From NCBI RefSeq assembly GCF_001625215.2, contig NC_030385.2, positions 31,893,598 to 31,957,597 on the forward strand: DNA of 64,000 nucleotides. Reading direction: 5' to 3'. The notes below the pieces were generated by a model that saw only the letters and a program-made list of their open reading frames with translations, searched no databases and was not told the origin of the DNA. This document shows, one piece after another, positions 15,304 through 51,377 of the stretch. How positions within the stretch are numbered: position 1 is the stretch's first letter; each line of letters begins with the position of its first letter. This DNA comes from Daucus carota subsp. sativus. Lineage: Eukaryota > Streptophyta > Magnoliopsida > Apiales > Apiaceae. A program made the translations under genes and the position numbers.

Positions 15304-15974
15304 AAAAATTTGTTTGGATACTTCACACAACAAATATGTGATTTATTTGTTTTCTGTATAATGAAAATTCATATCATTCCAATATTAACAAAGAAATCCC
15401 GACAAAAAAAGATAAAACATTAACAAAGTAATACTCTTGACATTATAAAATAGGCTAAATGCCCTCTTAACCGTCGTATTTGAAAGCTTGTATCTATATT
15501 GTTTTAATGTTTTAATTCAGTCGATTCAATCATTCAGGGGTAATGAGAACGAGCAAACTTTATCTTCAATAGTAATTGTCAAGTTTATCCTTCGTTAAAT
15601 ATCATTTTTTTTAATTTCTCCTTCATTAAATATCATTTTTTAATTTCATCTCGGTATGAGGGTTAATCAGAATATATCGAATACTTGGAGCGTTATATCG
15701 GTCGAGTTAAAACATTGATGATGTAAAGGACGTGAAGACTACAAAATATCACTAATTTGGATATTGATAAAAAAAATAGTCAATCTCAATCCTTATTATT
15801 TTCATATTATTCATCGTCAATAATAAGCTATATTAATATATTTCAACTTAAATTTTCTATTTTATTGTCAATTGTATTGATTCACCGATGTTAAATGAAG
15901 AACTTGGTCGTTTTTCTTTACTTTCATGAAAACAAAGATATATCTTAAAAACAAGAGGAATTACCTTGTATACT
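15304..15974. other. AT-rich intergenic DNA; nothing recognised
   Basis: Non-coding, AT-rich sequence between the MIP exon 1 duplicate and the inverted-repeat arm. It contains no open frame with recognisable homology. Confidence 0.5.
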
Positions 15975-16205
15975 GTTTTTCCAATCTTATTTTCAAAAAT
16001 GCTACCTTCTCCAATCTTATTTTCAAAAATATCATCTTCTCTAAAATTTTTCAAATATACTATCTTTTTGAAAATATTTTCCAAAAATACGGTGGTTGCA
16101 TATGCAACCATATATGCAACTACAAATCCTGGTTTCAAGTTCCAGTTTTCAAATGTCATTTTCGACCTCATCTTTGAAATCGATATATATATAATATATT
16201 GAATA

Positions 16206-16626
16206 TATTTTATATTGAATTAAGTTGTGTATATTTCCATACACATAAAAGACCACAAAAAGAGTTTTGTTTTGTGGTTCTTACGTTACGTATACGTCTT
16301 CTTTGACTAGAATGAGCGTTATGAAGAAACTTCATGGTACAGAAAAAAAGAGGTATTCTTTTGTTTTTATTTCCTGCTGAGAAAGCATTCATTATCTCAG
16401 CTCATTTCTTAAAATACTTCAATCGGTACACGCAAGAAATAGGCCAATTCAGCAGCTTTTTGTTCGATTTTCCGTGGAGTAACATTCTCATCAGTACGAG
16501 TTAAAGGAATGGCCCCCTGGCCTCTGATATCCATATAAAGGACACGACGAGCATAAATACCCTCTTTAACTTCTATTCTGACGGACTGGATATCCTTTAT
16601 AAGGAATCGTCGGAAGATGCGACGAT
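16206..16626 (-). other. Nuclear plastid DNA insert (NUPT): ycf4 3' end and downstream spacer
   Basis: Read in reverse, 16626-16409 encodes the C-terminal ~71 residues of plastid Ycf4, the photosystem I assembly factor, including [26 protein letters not shown] and [14 protein letters not shown], followed by TAA. The next ~200 bp (16408 to about 16206) look like the plastid spacer downstream of ycf4. The frame is open in this piece, but about 110 N-terminal residues and any plastid promoter are missing, so it is a non-functional transfer. The window is otherwise nuclear, so this is an insertion. Confidence 0.85.
16409..16626 (-). pseudogene. ycf4: ycf4 C-terminal fragment
   Basis: The last ~71 codons of ycf4 ending at TAA (16411-16409). 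The normal protein is about 184 residues; both N-terminal membrane helices are absent. It is dead as a gene here and marks the plastid origin of the surrounding DNA. Confidence 0.85.
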
Positions 16627-16679
16627 TATATATTATATTATATATATTATATATATAATATATTATATAATATTATATT

Positions 16680-16963
16680 TGTTATAAATCTAAAGTAATA
16701 AACTAAATATAATATCAAGCGAGTAAGAGAAATATGCGTCGATGAGAAGGTGAGAAAGACATGAGAGATATGTTATTGCTTATACCTTCAACTCATTTGT
16801 ACATGCTTTATTTATAGCTGAAAATTACTTAACTTGCATAATATGAATACAAGCTGGTAACCGTGTATCGAAAATAGAAAGTAGGCTACAGTTTTCAAAT
16901 TACGTGTATTGGTAATTGCATTCTTCTGGTAACTTTGACAGTCACTCTGCTTCATTTATAACA
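16680..16963 (-). repeat. Copia 3' LTR and adjacent polypurine tract
   Basis: 284-bp LTR. Immediately inside it, at 16964-16972, the complement reads AAGGGGGAG, a good polypurine tract for plus-strand priming. Confidence 0.92.
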
Positions 16964-17097
16964 CTCCCCCTTGATTGTCAATGTGAGTTATTATTACAAA
17001 GATTGACTGCCTCGTTAAAACCTTGCAAGGAAAAACCCAATGGGATAAAAACCTTGACGAAGGAAAAAGAGTACAGCCTCCCCCTGAATAAATTGTC

Positions 17098-19389
17098 TCA
17101 CATGTTGACATCTTGATGTAGTAAACCTTTTAATCTCCGCATACCCATATTATTTCTCAGCTTCTCAAATGTTGATGTCGGTAGTGATTTTGTAAGTATA
17201 TCCGCCAGATTATCGCATGAACGAACTTGTTGTACATCAATATCACCATTTTCTTGAAGTTCATGAGTGTAGAAGAATTTTGGCAATATGTGTTTTGTTC
17301 GATCCCCTTTAATATATCCTTCCTTAAGTTGTTTGATGCAGGCCGAGTTATCTTCGAATAAAACTGTAGGTTTGTCTGAAACATTTGATAATCCACATGA
17401 TTCTCGAATATGTTGGATGACAGACCTTAGCCAAATACATTCTCTGCTTGCTTCATGAATCACTAGTAACTCTGCGTGGTTTGATGAAGTTGCAGCCATA
17501 GTATGTTTTGTAGGCTTCCAAGAAATAGCAATACCACAATATGTAAACAAATAACCAGTCTGTGATCGTCCAAAGTGAGGATCTGACATGTATCCAGCAT
17601 CTGCATATCCAGTTAGTTGCGAACTTGAACTGCTTGGATAGAATAACCCAAGATCAATTGTACCCCGAAGATATCTGAATATATGTTTGATTCCATCCCA
17701 ATGCCTTTTAGTAGGGTCAGAACTAAATCTCGCCAATAGGTTCACTGCAAATGCAATATCCGGTCGTGTGTTGTTTGCGAGATACATGAGGGCGCCAATT
17801 GCACTGAGATATGGAGTCTCAGGTCCAAGAGCCTCTTCATCTTTCTTTCTAGGACGGAAAGGATCCTTTTCAACCTCAAATGATCGAACAACCATTGGTG
17901 TGGTTAGTGGATGAGCTTTGTCCATGTGGAACCGATCAAGAATCTTTTCAGTGTAGCTTGATTGATGAACAGATATTCCTGAAGGTAAGTGCTCCACCTG
18001 TATACCTAAACAAAATCTTGTCTTTCCAAGATCTTTCATTTCAAACTCATTTTTCAAATAGTTAGTAGCATTAGCAATATCTTCAGAAGTACCAACAATA
18101 TTCAAATCATCCACATATACAGCGATAATAACAAAACCAGTCAGCGAACGTTTAATGAAAACACAAGGACATATTTGGTTATTAACATATCCATCATTCA
18201 ATAAGTATTCACTAAGCCTGTTGTACCACATACGACCAGATTGTTTCAAACCATACAATGATCGTTGTAATTTAACTGAATATAAATATCGAGGCTTAGT
18301 GTCCTCTATATTTAATCCTTCAGGGATTTTCATATAAATATCACTATCAAGTGATCCATATAGGTATGCTGTCACGACGTCCATCAAATGTGTTTCTAGT
18401 TTTTCCATACAAGCCATACCTATTAGAAAACGGAAGGTAACTCCATCCATCACAGGAGAGTATGTTTCCTGGTAATCAAAACCAGGTCTTTGAGAGAATC
18501 CCTGAGCTACAAGCCGGGCTTTATATCTTACAATTTCATTTCTCTCATTTCGTTTTCGTACAAATACCCATCTATTCCCAACAGGGACTACACCAGCTGG
18601 TGTTTGGACTGCAGGTCCAAATACATTTCTTTTGCGCAATGATTGCAATTCTTCTTGAATTGCAATTTTCCATTTTGGCCAATCATCTCTTTGTCGACAT
18701 TCTTCCACACTTTGTGGTTCAGGATCAGAGTTCATAATAATATCAAATGCCACGGAAAAAGCATACACGTCATCAATTTCAGTACTCTCACGATCCAATA
18801 ATTTCCCGTTATGTACATAACTCATTGAGATCTCATAATTCTTAGGTACCTTTGCTTCTATGGAAGCATTTGCCACTTCTGGGGCATGTGCCACTTTTGG
18901 GGCAATTTCCACTTCAGGAGGTTTTGTTACAGCCACTTCAGGGGCTTGAATCTCTTCAGGAGGCAATACCACTTCTGGGGTATTTTCTGAAACTTTTGCC
19001 ACTTCTGGGGCAATTCCAATCAATTTCTGTTTTCGTGGTACAATATCTTTTGCACCAATAGGTCTACCACGCTTTTGGCGTGGCTTTGAATCACCAATCA
19101 ATTCCTCTGAAATTGATTTATTGCCAGGTATTTCACTCCTGGCCGGAGCATTTACAGCAGGTATATTAAAAGCATCTGGCATTTGATTAGCAATATTTTG
19201 CATATGTATAATTCTTTTAACCTCAGATTCACATTGTTTAGTACGTGGATCAATAGCATTTAATCCTGAGGCATTCCATGATATTTCTGAATTTAATTTA
19301 TGCAAAATTTTATCTACCCCTAATGTAGGGAACATAGATTCATCAAAATGACAATCAGCATACCGAGCAGTAAATACATCACCAGTCAA
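17098..19389 (-). pseudogene. Copia reverse transcriptase / RNase H
   Basis: A 763-residue open stretch. Residues ~1-190 are a linker rich in P-E-V repeats (APEVA, PPEVE, APKVA). Reverse transcriptase (RVT_2) starts near WPKWKIAIQEEL and carries the catalytic YVDD (AVYVDDLNIVG), preceded by RSLYGLKQSGRMWYNRL. RNase H follows, with GYADAGY, SNHAELL and the final ADILTKSLP motif. The domain looks intact, but upstream stops and the frameshift separate it from gag and integrase. It ends just before the polypurine tract. Confidence 0.93.
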
Positions 19390-19403
19390 TGGTTCCAGAT
19401 ACC

Positions 19404-20665
19404 TTATAATAGACAGAGAATCAAACCAACATATATACCAATTCTTCTTTGAGGTCCCATTTTAGTTCTTTGAGGTGGTGATATAGGAACATATACAACA
19501 CAACCAAATACTTTTAAATGAGAGATATTAGGCACTTGACCAAGAACTAATTCTTGAGGGGATTGTTTGTGGTAAGCAGAAGGTCTTATCTTAATTATAT
19601 TTGCAGCATGAAGTATTGCATGACCCCAAACAGATATAGGTAACTTTGCTCTTAGGAGTAAGGGACGGGCAATAAGTTGAAGTCTTTTAATTAAGGATTC
19701 TGCTAAACCATTTTGTGTATGTACGTGAGCTACCGGGTGTTCGACTGAGATTCCTACTGACATGCAATAATCATTAAAAGTTGCAGATGTAAATTCAACA
19801 GCATTATCTAGTCGGATTGATTTAATGGGATGATCAGGAAATTGAGTTCGTAGTTTAATGATTTGGGCAAGTAATTTGGCAAAGGCTGTGTTTCGGGTTG
19901 TAAGCAGACATACATGGGACCATCTAGTTGACGCATCAATTAAAACCATAAAGTACCTAAATGGGCCAGAAGATAGATGAATAGGAACACAAATGTCACC
20001 TTGAATTCTTTCTAAGAATTTCGGGGACTCGGTTTGAAACTTAACTGGGGATGGTCGAACAATTAGTTTTCCTAAGGAACATGCTGAACAATGAAGTTCA
20101 TCTTGGGGTATTATCTTTTGAGCTTTAAGAGGATGTCCTACAGAATTTTCAACGATACGACGCATCATTGATACTCCTGGATGACCGAGTCTTTCGTGCC
20201 AAAGGGAAAGTAGTTTTGGGTCTATGACTTTGGGGATGTTGACACTATGAGATTCAATAACTCGTATACTCGTAACATATAATCCGGAAGAAACCGAGTG
20301 GAATGTTTCTAGGACGTTTTTATTGTCAACGGTGTTTGCGGTGATGAGAAGGTATTCTTTTTCATTCTCATTAGTAGTTTCAACGTGAAACCCATTAAGA
20401 CGAATATCTTTAAAACTCAATAGGTTTCTAGTTGACTTACTAGAGTATAGAGCCTCTTGTATGTGTATGTTTGTCTTATTTGGTAGAATAAAACTAGCTT
20501 TCCCAAAACCTTCTATTATATTTGATGTACCCGATACCGTCTAGACATGTGAGTTGGTTTTAGTCAACTGTGAGAAGTATTTCTAACTCTGTAAAATAGT
20601 GTGTGTGGTTGCGCAGTCAACAATGCATATATCTTCCATCTCTATACACATATATAAATGAAAAA
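19404..20665 (-). pseudogene. Copia protease remnant and integrase
   Basis: A protease-like stretch (EDICIVDCATTHTIL, about 20650) is followed by in-frame TAG codons near 20583-20585 and 20541-20543. From 20420 the integrase is open: the zinc finger HERLGHPG...CSACSLGK, then the DDE core with D in GDICVP, D in IRLDNAVEF and E in NGLAES, and the C-terminal LKVFGCVVYVP. The reading ends at 19404 through a one-base frameshift just before the linker to reverse transcriptase. Confidence 0.9.
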
Positions 20666-20792
20666 AACATCTTTATTAAAAACACACCGAGTACATATAA
20701 CAACAATATAAAACAAGTACATAAAACGAGTACATAATGAAAAAACATAAAACACAGAGGAAATAAGTAAAGTAAGACAATACATATGAAGC

Positions 20793-21830
20793 CTAGTCGT
20801 CTAAACCATAATAAAGATTAGCACCACTATCTTTTTCATTTGAGGCCTTATTGACTGGTTCATTAACTAGATTATAATTAGCAAAGTTTGTTTCCACTCT
20901 CTTTCCAGTATTCCTTTTGAACGACTCGTAGAGATCAACAAGATGTTTGGGTGTGCGACAAGTACGTTGCCAGTGTCCCTCAGTTCCACACCAATGACAT
21001 ATGTCTCGTTTCTCTCCTTCTTGGGGTGCCTTTCTTTTGTTTGACACTTCACGTTGGCACTTGTTGTAACCATCACGTTGCCACTTCAGATGGCCAGAAT
21101 GATATTGATTGCGAAACCGACCACGGAAATTTCCACGTCCACGGTTTCGTCCATAACCTCGTCCTCCTCTATGCCCTTTCCCACGTTCATTCTTCAGGAA
21201 TGACGTGTTATGTACTTCAGGTAACTGGGCAGAGCCTGTGGGACGTATCTGATGATTTTTCAGTAGCAACTCGTTATTCTTTTCAGCCACAAGAAGGAGA
21301 GATATCAACTCGCCATATTTCCGAAAATTCCGCTCCCTATATTGTTGAGCCAGGATCATAGTGTTGGGGTGAAAAGTTGAGAGGGTTTTTTCAATCATTT
21401 CAGCATCAGTAATATTTTCACCACATAAAATTAATTTTGAGCTTATCTTGAAAAGAGCAGAATTATATTCAGCTACGGATTTGAAATCCTATAGCCTCAA
21501 ATTAATCCAGTCATATCGGGCAGATGGCAAGTGAACAAGTTTCTGGTGATCAAATCTATCCTTGAGATTATTCCAAAAGGTGAGTGGATTTTTGATAGTG
21601 AGGTATTCAGATTTTAGGTCTTCATGGATGTGATGCCTAAGAAAGATAATTGCTTTTGCATTTTGTTCAACAGTTGAGATTTTTTCTGGGTCAATAGTAT
21701 CTTTTAGGCCATTAGCACTAAGGTGTAATTCCGCATCAAGGACCCATGACAGATAATTATTTCCAGAAACATCCAAGGCAACGAACTCTAATTTTGCAAG
21801 ATTCGCCATTCTGAATTTAAAATACGACAC
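20793..21830 (-). pseudogene. Copia gag, interrupted by a stop
   Basis: A UBN2-type retrotransposon capsid protein. The N-terminal part (MANLAKLEFVALDVSGNNYL, then SWVLDAELHL) runs to an in-frame TAG at 21491-21489 and resumes in the same frame. The C-terminal part is basic and RG-rich (GGRGYGRNRGRGNFRGRF) and carries a CCHC zinc knuckle, CHWCGTEGHWQRTC, used for RNA packaging. The frame ends at TAG 20795-20793. The internal stop would remove the zinc knuckle from the product. Confidence 0.9.
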
Positions 21831-22096
21831 AATAATATAACATGTTGGTAAATAAAATAATTAATCATGTGTCACATAATAATATAACAACAATATAAAC
21901 AAGTTTAAAAAACTATAATAATGACAAGGGTGTTGATAATAACATTTATAAAATAAAATAAATAAGTTAGAGCGTACCTTCTTTGTTGAAATAAAACCCG
22001 GATAAAATCTTGTACTCCTTTATCGAAATAAACTCGGATAAAATTTTGTACTCCTCTATCGAAATAAAACTCGGGCAGAGATTCGTGCTGATAACG

Positions 22097-22380
22097 TGTT
22101 ATAAATCTAAAGTAATAAACTAAATATAATATCAAGCGAGTAAGAGAAATATGCGTCGATGAGAAGGTGAGAAAGACAGGAGAGATATGTTATTGCTTAT
22201 ACCTTCAACTCATTTGTACATGCTCTATTTATAGCTGAAAATTACTTAACTTGCATAATATGAATACAAGCTGGTAACCGTGTATCGAAAATAGAAAGTA
22301 GGCTACAGTTTTCAAATTACGTGTATTGATAATTGCATTCTTCTGGTAACTTTGACAATCACTCTGCTTCATTTATAACA
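22097..22380 (-). repeat. Copia 5' LTR
   Basis: A 284-bp direct repeat of 16680-16963 (TG...CA ends). As the element is on the minus strand, this is the 5' LTR and should carry the promoter. A candidate primer-binding site lies just inside it at about 22080-22096 (complement CGTTATCAGCACGAAT). It is not the usual initiator-Met tRNA sequence. Confidence 0.92.
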
Positions 22381-22585
22381 ATATTATATATTATATATCG
22401 ATTCCAAAGATGAGGTCGAAAATGACATTTGAAAACTGGAACTTGAAATCAGGATTTGTAATTGCATATATGGTTGAATATGCAACCATAATATTTTTGA
22501 AAATATTTTAGAGAAGGTAGTATTTTTGAAAATAAGATTGGAGAAGGTAGTATTTTTGAAAATAAGATTGAAAACTTGGTTATGA

Positions 22586-23280
22586 ATAAAAAAAGCCCAA
22601 AAACAAATACATATTTATATATGAGTTGAAATTTCTAGTTAAAATAATATAATGACTAAAGGAACGAAAGTTATAAAAATATTCTATAATCAAACACTAG
22701 ACGATCGAGCTCAAGAGATAGTCGATCCTTAAAATAGAATCTTAGAATCATGAAGGTAGAACCTTGAATTTTAAATAATTTCAACATATAATAAACAAAA
22801 ACAATATTTTTTACATGCGCAATTCTATTGCAAAATCATAATAAATAGTAAAAATAGAGATACTAAAAATTCTAAAGCCAATAATTTTTTTATATAATTT
22901 TTAATTTCATTCTCCTTTGTTCCATCTCATCTACGTGACCTTCATGAAACAGGATACCCACCGAGTCCGAAAGGGACTTTGGCCGTGAAAACAAAACAAA
23001 ATAAATCTTGTAAAAATGAAGACGGTAATATCCGGTAAATGCATCTGAGTGATGTGGGACAACGACGCTGGCTGTTAGTAATTTTGTATGCCACGTTCAG
23101 CGTAGAAATGCAAAAATCTACCCTTAAAAGGTTTGATTAATTCCATAGGCATTTTCCAGACCTGTGATATCTACAACGAGCACAAGGTGTTTGACAAATC
23201 GCGTAGCTGAGGTAAAACAAATCTCACTCTCGCAACTCGCATTGTAAAAACAAAGCAGAAGAGCTGAGTAGATCTTAGCG
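22586..23280. other. Upstream region of the nucleotide kinase gene
   Basis: Spacer between the TIR element and the kinase start. The last ~250 bp are less AT-rich and should contain the promoter and 5' leader; no clear TATA box is seen. No other gene is recognised. Confidence 0.5.
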
Positions 23281-37382: not shown

Positions 37383-38606
37383 GAGTAATGCTAGGGACAC
37401 AGAAACGGCTACAGAAAATTTTCACAGAATGACGTGTCTTTGCTGAGATGTACCAACATTAAATAGGTAGTCGGCCACTGTGACATTTACTTATACTTTC
37501 TACACTGTTATACTTATATTTATCTCACAACCCTTTCCACATAATTTGACGATATATATATTTATTATCTAATTTTATTTTGTTTCATTACAACTTTTTT
37601 CTAACACACTTACTAATATATTCAATTATTATTTCCAATTCATGTTACCACATTCAACACATATTATCATTTTTTGTTATATTATTTTAAATTTAAATCT
37701 TTTCTACTCTTTATGTCCCAAAATAATAGTCGTTTTGACTTTTTACACGTAGGTTGAGGTGTAAAAAAATATGCTTTCACATACTATTTTTCCAATTTTC
37801 TTTTTTTGATTAAAAATATAAATGTTAAATTTTTATTTAAAAAAAGAAAATTTTTAAATAACGAATAGAAATATATTTTTTTTACATGCGAAAAGTGGAA
37901 GCGACAATTTGGAACAGAGGAGTATTACGTTGTATTCAAAGTATAGAAATATAATTACTTATTTTCATTTTTTTGTGAGAGAAGAGACATAACACGCCAT
38001 CACAAACTACATCAAATTACGTAAAAGAATATTATCTGTTTATATTTTTGTTTTTTATATTTATATGTTTGACATACTTATTAATATATATTTATATATT
38101 TATATTTGGCTCGTGTTTTATAATTTTGAAATCTTATGTCAAGAATAAATCGATTCAAATAAAATAAAATGGAGTATATTTAAATAAAACTTTGTAGATT
38201 TAAATAATTTGAGTTGTTGTTTAATATATATTCAATTCTAATTTAGTAGTGAACAAGTTTTAATTTGTATACTAGTCAAATTATTTTATTAAAATATTAT
38301 AACAAAAAATGATAATATGTGTTAAATGTGATAACATGAATTGGAAATAATAATTAAATATATAAAAATATATTAGTAAGTGTGTTAGAAAAAGTTATAA
38401 TGAAACAAAATAAAATTAGATAATAAATATATATATCGTCAAATTATGTGGAGAGGGTGTGTGAGATAAATATAAGTATAACAGTGTAGGAAGTATAAGT
38501 AAATGTCACAGTGGCCGACCACCTATTTAATGCTGGTACATCTCAGCAAAGACACGTCATTCTGTGAAAATTTTCTGTAGCCATTTCTGTGTCCCTAGCA
38601 TTACTC
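37383..38606. mobile_element. Long-armed foldback (MULE-like) element with nested Stowaway
   Basis: A 1,224-bp element flanked by the 9-bp repeat TTATAACAT (37374-37382, 38607-38615). Its left ~310 bp (37383-37695) recur inverted at about 38285-38606 with few differences. Ends are GAGTAATGCTAGGGACACAG and its complement; GACGTGTCTTTGCTGAGATG and TCTAACACACTTACTAATAT occur in both arms. The spacer holds a Stowaway MITE (37707-37922) and AT-rich DNA. There is no coding capacity. The 9-bp duplication points to the Mutator superfamily. Confidence 0.92.
37707..37922. mobile_element. Stowaway-type MITE nested in the foldback element
   Basis: Ends CTCTTTATGTCCCAAAATAA and complementary TTTGGAACAGAGGAG, with TA on each side. 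More diverged than the other Stowaways in the window. Confidence 0.75.
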
Positions 38607-50098: not shown

Positions 50099-51377
50099 TG
50101 TTGGGATTATTTATTTAATCTAAACTTGTGTCAATTATTGTTATGGGGTGTTTTATTTGTTTAGTTGTTTTAAATAAATTATATCAGTTACGTGTGTATA
50201 AGTAGCAGTAGGAGAGATATTATAGGAGAGTCATGGGAAGTGGAAGTATATTAGGAGTCCAGTACGCTACTTTCTAGGTTAGTTGCTATTTTTGTGTTAC
50301 CCACCTCTTGCCTGTGGTTCTATTTAAACTGCATGTACCTTGTTTAGTTTATCAGAAGAGAATACAATGTAATCTTTATGTATTTTCTCCGTTTATACAT
50401 ATAAAACTACCGTCTCTATATCCTTTTTATTATTTTTATCAAATTCCAACATGGTATCAGAGCTTGCGGGGAGTATCAAGGCTTAACAGCCTTCCCTACC
50501 ATTCCTTGGAGGTACGTAAGAGCAGTTGGAGTGAGGGAGCCGGTGAAGAAAGAGTTAGGACAAAAGGTTGGTTTGATAGAGTGCGCCAACTGTTCCATGA
50601 AATGCAGGAGAGATCATCATGTGCAGTATGGGATGCATATGGAATTCTTTCATTAGTCTAAGTGTCAGATGGGCGTGCCAGACGGGCAAATTTGAAGTGC
50701 GATACAGTCAAAGAAGTAATAGCCATACGGGCTTAGAAGTAATAGCCATACGGGCTCAGAAGGATAGCCATACGGGCTTGTGAAGAATAGCTATACGGGC
50801 TCAGTGTAAAAGCCATACGGGCTTGTGAAGAATAGCCATACGGGCTCAGAAGAATAGCCATACGGGCTTGTGAAGAATAGCCATACGGGCTCAATTTAAA
50901 AGGCCACACGGGCCAATAAAGAAAGTCTTATCGGCTACCAAGGTCTTGCCAGATGGGCATCAAAGATCATGCCAGATGCGAAGAATTTGCCAGGCAGCTA
51001 AGTTTAGATTAAGGAGGAGATTGTTGGGATTATTTATTTAATCTAAACTTGTGTCAATTATTGTTATGGGGTGTTTTATTTGTTTAGTTGTTTTAAATAA
51101 ATTATATCAGCAGTTACGTGTGTATAAGTAGCAGTAGGAGAGATATTATAGGAGAGTCATGGGCAGTGGAAGTATATTAGGAGTCCAGTACGCTACTTTC
51201 TAGGTTAGTTGCTATTTTTGTGTTACCCACCTCTTGCCTGTGGTTCTATTTAAACTGCATGTACCTTGTTTAGTTTATCAGAAGAGAATACAATGTAGTC
51301 TTTATGTATTTTCTCCGTTTATACATATAAAACTACTGTCTCTATATCCTTTTTATTATTTTTATCAAATTCCAACA
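50099..51377 (+). mobile_element. TRIM-like miniature LTR retrotransposon
   Basis: A 1,279-bp element flanked by GTTAA (50094-50098, 51378-51382), with direct LTRs of 353 and 356 bp (50099-50451, 51022-51377) beginning TGTTGGGATT and ending TTCCAACA. The primer-binding site TGGTATCAGAGC (50452-50463) adjoins the 5' LTR and matches initiator-Met tRNA. The polypurine tract AAGGAGGAGA adjoins the 3' LTR. The LTRs differ by three substitutions and one 3-bp indel, so the insertion is young. The ~570-bp interior has no gag or pol and carries a nine-unit minisatellite, so mobility must be supplied in trans. Confidence 0.95.
50725..50925 (+). repeat. Minisatellite inside the TRIM-like element
   Basis: Nine imperfect units of 21-25 bp built on ATAGCCATACGGGCT. 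They mostly alternate between units continuing TGTGAAGA and CAGAAGA. The last unit is diverged (GGCCACACGGGCC). Confidence 0.9.

What the first reader, a model, noticed from the sequence alone, without database searches (positions are those of the whole stretch)
15975..22585. An inverted-repeat element that appears to carry chloroplast DNA
Two ~200-bp inverted arms (15975-16190 and 22393-22585) enclose, once the copia insertion is removed, only a plastid fragment with the end of ycf4 and AT-rich DNA. Plant transposons are known to capture nuclear gene pieces (Pack-MULEs), but capture of plastid DNA would be unusual. Such an element could spread plastid sequence around a nuclear genome. Order of events: arms and NUPT first, then copia, whose TSD ATATT lies inside the AT-rich centre.
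Basis: partly seen in the sequence, partly recalled or inferred. Interest (0 to 1): 0.75.

Follow-up and report, generated by a model that had tools for sequence, protein, structure and literature searches.

The report
Plastid fragment inside a hairpin transposon
In a plant nuclear chromosome, a scrap of chloroplast DNA and a retrotransposon sit in the TA-rich middle of a small, very common hairpin-shaped transposon; nothing shows that the transposon picked the chloroplast DNA up or spread it, although one other copy of the same transposon also holds chloroplast DNA in the same kind of spot.

Summary
The arms are subterminal parts of a non-autonomous foldback element with MULE-like features. 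The inner-arm core occurs 1,136 times in this genome of nine large contigs (440.7 Mb; fits carrot DH1 v3). Inside lie 415 bp of plastid DNA (end of ycf4 plus spacer; 11 mismatches and a 9-bp gap) and an LTR element with TSD ATATT. Without both inserts 523 bp remain, within the range of 15 other copies (376-1,088), with TA-rich loop on both sides: the plastid piece looks added, not exchanged.

The mobile plastid-carrier idea failed its own test: 0 of 15 other nuclear ycf4 rows have arms. By eye, 19 of 97 other arm places have non-family DNA right after the TA repeat, mostly recurring repeats where identified; one (L053) holds a psbK fragment, a second plastid piece at the same kind of site. Most likely: separate insertions into a TA-rich hairpin loop. 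A mild preference of plastid DNA for such loops is not excluded (crude P 0.035-0.085).

The parts
15946..15954 (.). left target-site duplication TAAAAACAA
   Evidence: 8 of 9 against the right side with a shift of up to 1 base allowed; 10 of 16 copies exact, 4 of 16 at 8/9; of 240 mismatched pairs 0 exact, 5 at 8
15955..22598 (.). non-autonomous foldback MULE-like element (MITE) with later insertions
15977..16190 (+). left arm with subterminal repeats and inner hairpin arm
   Evidence: 70 genome matches from 40 scored of 1,229 candidates
16191..16212 (.). left part of the TA-rich loop; TATTGAAT at 16197 is repeated at the plastid junction (16213)
16213..16627 (-). nuclear plastid DNA: 3' end of ycf4 plus the spacer after it (gene naming by eye)
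16628..16679 (.). right part of the TA-rich loop; ends in TSD ATATT
16680..22380 (-).
22381..22392 (.). second TSD ATATT and rest of the loop
22393..22574 (-). right arm
   Evidence: 81 genome matches from 40 scored of 1,061 candidates
22599..22606 (.). right target-site duplication AAAAACAA (one base short or changed)

Best explanation
A high-copy, apparently non-coding foldback element of the Mutator-like (MULE) type inserted here with a 9-bp duplication. Its arms could pair into a hairpin around a TA-rich loop. Later a break in that loop was repaired by end joining with a free 415-bp piece of plastid DNA (an ordinary NUPT), and an LTR retrotransposon jumped into the same loop, probably afterwards. 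Shown: the element's ends, its family, loop sequence on both sides of the plastid piece, the plastid source, the TSD of the LTR element. Inferred: the break and its repair, and that the element was already resident when the plastid DNA arrived.
For: Without the inserts the element is 523 bp; 15 other copies with both ends measure 376-1,088 bp. TA-rich sequence of the family type lies on both sides of the plastid piece. The ycf4 piece is unique to this element: 0 of 15 other nuclear ycf4 rows have arms. Loops of this family take in foreign DNA: 19 of 97 arm places have non-family DNA right after the TA repeat (by eye), and in all 5 that were followed (L043, L053, L054, L061, L062) family sequence resumes beyond it. 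Several inserts recur (L043/L062, L043/L126, L061/L077/L130, L054/L134); one has 801 first-look candidates genome-wide. Possible microhomology or slippage trace: TATTGAAT at 16197 and 16213. PMC7037861 (passages) describes organelle DNA as filler at breaks with 1-7 bp microhomology.
Against: Element-before-plastid is not proven by age: left-arm branch about 8/234 (3.4%, by hand), plastid piece 2.65% (CI 1.3-4.7%). No empty site was found: in flank searches (40 candidates scored of 86 and of 88) no other match reaches the junction. The window TSD is 8 of 9, which 5 of 240 unrelated pairs also reach. A second plastid-bearing loop (L053) is slightly more than a simple chance view predicts.
Confidence: 0.85

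Rival explanations
1. The element captured the plastid DNA elsewhere, as Pack-MULEs take up gene pieces, and brought it here by transposition.
For: MULE-like element with a TSD outside the arms and plastid DNA inside; a second copy with a different plastid fragment. PMC7037861 (passages) reports NUPTs multiplied together with neighbouring retrotransposons, so spread of plastid DNA by transposons has a precedent.
Against: No second copy of arms plus ycf4 (0 of 15 rows). The L053 insert has one full-length match, itself (14 matches from 12 candidates). Loop sequence is kept on both sides of the plastid piece.
Confidence: 0.1
2. TA-rich loops of these hairpins are preferred landing sites for plastid DNA, because they extrude, break and are repaired with filler. 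(A special form of the best explanation, so the two odds overlap.)
For: Two different plastid pieces (ycf4, psbK) in loops of one family; 1 in 97 arm places outside the window against a crude expectation of 0.036-0.089 (P 0.035-0.085).
Against: The expectation is rough; the window case was preselected; 50 of the 97 places were picked for lacking a close facing partner, which favours loops with inserts; 12 other ycf4 NUPTs show no TA run over 6 bp within 60 bp of the junctions. PMC12572781 (passages) reports NUPTs correlated positively with DNA transposons in 3 species and negatively in 22.
Confidence: 0.12
3. Assembly error joining plastid reads to an element.
For: No reads were available to check the junctions.
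Against: 11 mismatches and a 9-bp gap against the plastid contig point to a diverged nuclear copy.
Confidence: 0.02

Closest known systems
MuTAnT foldback MULEs of Medicago (PMC4486113, passages read)
   Same: Short non-autonomous foldback, modular long TIRs, GGGG/CCCC ends, 9-nt TSD, AT-rich targets
   Different: Here a TA repeat is the internal loop and a target for other insertions; no transposase or sequence relation was tested
NUPTs (PMC7037861, PMC12572781, PMC6215612: passages)
   Same: Short diverged plastid fragment in nuclear DNA; association with transposable elements is reported
   Different: Sits in the loop of one hairpin element family; no listed title or abstract start names this
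Pack-MULEs (recalled, nothing read)
   Same: Foreign DNA between MULE-like ends
   Different: Loop retained on both sides, insert unique, no sign of spread

Membership tests
Mutator-like (MULE) non-autonomous element | 9-bp target-site duplication | tested here: met
   of 16 copies (15 of the 27 other copies, plus the window) 10 exact, 4 at 8/9 (window among them), 2 fail (L055, L058); L047 dropped, no 5' end; 11 of the 27 lacked both ends in the stretch held; shift of 1 base allowed
Mutator-like (MULE) non-autonomous element | Long inverted arms, foldback arrangement | tested here: met
   folding itself was not computed
Mutator-like (MULE) non-autonomous element | Related mudrA-type transposase with the same termini | not tested
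   no autonomous partner was sought
NUPT | Nuclear locus matching the plastid genome, diverged from it | tested here: met
Pack-MULE-like carrier of plastid DNA | Further copies of element plus the same captured piece | tested here: not met
   0 of 15 rows, flanks about 1.5 kb; L011 (929 N) and L015 (1,232 N) partly masked
Pack-MULE-like carrier of plastid DNA | TSD flanking the whole composite | tested here: met
   8 of 9; equally expected if the element was resident first

The most novel reading that the evidence does not exclude
TA-rich loops of foldback MULE-like elements are fragile hairpin tips that break and are healed with whatever DNA is at hand, so that this element family acts genome-wide as a trap for plastid DNA; the ycf4 and psbK loops would be two independent catches.
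Probability: 0.12. Interest if true: 0.6.

Novelty: new member of a known kind. Interest (0 to 1): 0.3.

Why it matters
As it stands it is a clear example of nested insertion: hairpin transposon, plastid scrap, retrotransposon. Its use is that one genome holds over a thousand matches to the same inner hairpin arm, many beside TA repeats, a natural experiment on whether hairpin tips attract organelle DNA and other filler.

Tried and rejected
Rejected: mobile plastid carrier (0 of 15 other nuclear ycf4 rows have arms). Rejected: a hAT assignment, first suggested by TAGGG-like ends; the duplications are 9 bp. Led nowhere: an empty paralogous site (other matches are repeats away from the junctions); dating element against plastid piece (intervals overlap); TA-rich junctions as a general NUPT habit (12 loci, the two large C1 copies and one duplicate row left out; mosaic pieces from withheld plastid could be missed). 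A first guess of a Brassica-like genome was dropped: nine contigs sum to 440,708,879, longest 64.56 Mb, and PMC10581907 (passages) gives carrot DH1 v3 as 440.7 Mb, nine chromosomes, longest 64.5, N50 51.1; the name is inference.

Limits of the loop count. The 97 are arm places, some within one element: 27 of the 39 other top left-arm places (12 not fetched), 20 of the right-arm places, and 50 of the 100 places listed. Those 50 left out places already held, places with a close facing partner (13 exact pairs and a few known), and three further places, so 11 of 50 overstates how often loops hold foreign DNA. Judgement was by eye. For 14 of the 19 the far side was not followed or showed no family sequence (L008, L077), so some could be flank of a broken element. 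Unclear L082, L097, L119, L129 were not counted. Plastid screening of the 97 used the 45 kb of plastid held (one match, 39 bp at 84.6% in L055, outside the element) plus reading by eye, so 1 of 97 is a lower bound. A letter-by-letter comparison of L011/L012 with the plastid misled because of shifts and masking; BLAST replaced it.

Full report
What is there. The window lies on C5 of a genome of 441,086,747 bases in 11 contigs; nine large contigs sum to 440,708,879 (lengths, sum). C11 behaves as the plastid contig; 82,500 of its 127,500 bases read N. Size, number and longest sequence fit carrot DH1 v3 as given in PMC10581907 (passages read); the name is inference.

The arms. Inverted arms at 15977-16190 and 22393-22574 are confirmed. 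They are a very common family: the left arm gave 70 matches from 40 scored of 1,229 candidates, the right arm 81 from 40 of 1,061, and the 27-base inner core occurs 551 + 585 times with up to 3 mismatches, 0 in the reversed control.

The true ends. Laying 17 copies side by side (the window and 16 of 27 other copies that show both ends) shows conserved sequence continuing outward to GGGGAATTA on the left and AAAGCCC on the right. One (L047) had no 5' end and was dropped. Of the remaining 16, with a shift of one base allowed, 10 have an exact 9-bp target duplication, 4 have 8 of 9 (the window among them) and 2 fail (L055, L058); of 240 mismatched pairs none is exact and 5 reach 8. In the window the element is 15955-22598. 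Foldback arms, G/C-run ends and 9-bp duplications in AT-rich targets are what MuTAnT MULEs of Medicago show (PMC4486113, passages read). No transposase was looked for, so the filing as MULE-like rests on structure.

The plastid piece. 16213-16627 matches C11:60783-60360 with 11 mismatches and one 9-bp gap: the end of ycf4 and the spacer after it. It is the only plastid match in the window against the held part of the plastid.

The LTR element. LTRs differ at 4 of 284 positions and ATATT flanks it on both sides. Nesting makes it younger than the hairpin element. That it is also younger than the plastid piece is likely but not proven: 0.2-1.8% per LTR branch against 1.3-4.7%.

Insertion or capture. 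Without the plastid piece and the LTR element 523 bp remain, inside the 376-1,088 bp of the 15 other copies, with TA-rich loop sequence on both sides of the plastid piece. So the piece looks added to a whole element. Of 21 rows in the ycf4 search, one is the window, one the plastid contig, and four are TA-rich matches or the window again (L025, L026, L028, L029). The other 15 rows (14 places) were tested for arms within about 1.5 kb and none has them (L011 and L015 partly masked). The composite has not been seen to move. Against easy dismissal: PMC7037861 (passages) tells of NUPTs multiplied along with neighbouring retrotransposons, so such spread can happen.

A second plastid-bearing loop. 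Among 97 other arm places (7 + 20 + 20 + 50), I judged by eye that 19 have non-family DNA right after the TA repeat (6 of 27, 2 of 20, 11 of 50). The last 50 were picked for lacking a close facing arm, so their share is too high. In the five followed (L043, L053, L054, L061, L062), family sequence resumes beyond the insert. Several inserts recur and one has 801 candidates genome-wide, so these are repeats that settle in TA-rich DNA. L053 holds about 445 bp with a psbK reading frame (Pfam PsbK, E 7.8e-24); parts match scattered low-copy places, and only itself at full length. The psbK part of the plastid contig was not among the stretches held, and the rest of the insert was not identified. Screening all 97 places with the held 45 kb found one match, 39 bp in L055, outside the element.

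How unusual is that? Scaling 12 small ycf4 NUPTs to the whole plastid gives about 2,700 pieces; 97 loops of 60-150 bp would hold 0.036-0.089, P 0.035-0.085 for one or more. This is crude, and the window cannot be counted because it was chosen for its content. Twelve other ycf4 NUPTs do not sit in TA repeats, and PMC12572781 (passages) finds NUPTs correlated positively with DNA transposons in 3 species and negatively in 22. It is a hint, not a result.

Age. The window left arm has a branch of about 8 of 234 (by hand), the plastid piece 11 of 415 (CI 1.3-4.7%). They overlap, so age does not decide between insertion into a resident element and arrival together. Flank searches found no empty site.

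Literature. Searches for NUPT with Pack-MULE, MITE or capture and for carrot foldback MITEs (0 papers) listed no title or abstract start that names plastid DNA in loops of such elements; apart from the passages cited, those papers were not read, and the library lacks most subscription journals. PMC6215612 (passages) includes D. carota among genomes with organelle insertions joined by end joining.

Verdict. A real, nicely layered nested insertion, ordinary in mechanism as far as shown. The capture-and-spread reading is not supported. The one open point of interest is whether TA-loop hairpins collect plastid DNA more often than other TA-rich sites.

Noticed in passing
L053 421-865 (C8:21821442-21822692): A second copy of the element carries a psbK plastid fragment beside its TA repeat.
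   Followed up: partly
L011 and L012 (C1 about 409300 and 253464): Two plastid-like stretches 155.8 kb apart, 100% and 99.6% identical to the plastid contig where read: a large, perhaps tandem, recent plastid insertion or an assembly artefact.
   Followed up: partly
L043, L062, L126, L061, L077, L130, L054, L134: TA loops of the family host a few other repeat families again and again.
   Followed up: partly
window 50099-51377: A direct repeat pair of about 355 bp, 99-100% identical and 923-926 bp apart, enclosing short tandem repeats (50693-50963): looks like a young miniature LTR element.
   Followed up: no
window 37383-38606: Inverted repeat with three adjoining arm segments 95-97% complementary around a core of 598 bp.
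   Followed up: no
window 34703, 43927, 49650, 56634: Four related direct-repeat copies that read like pectinesterase genes (naming by eye).
   Followed up: no
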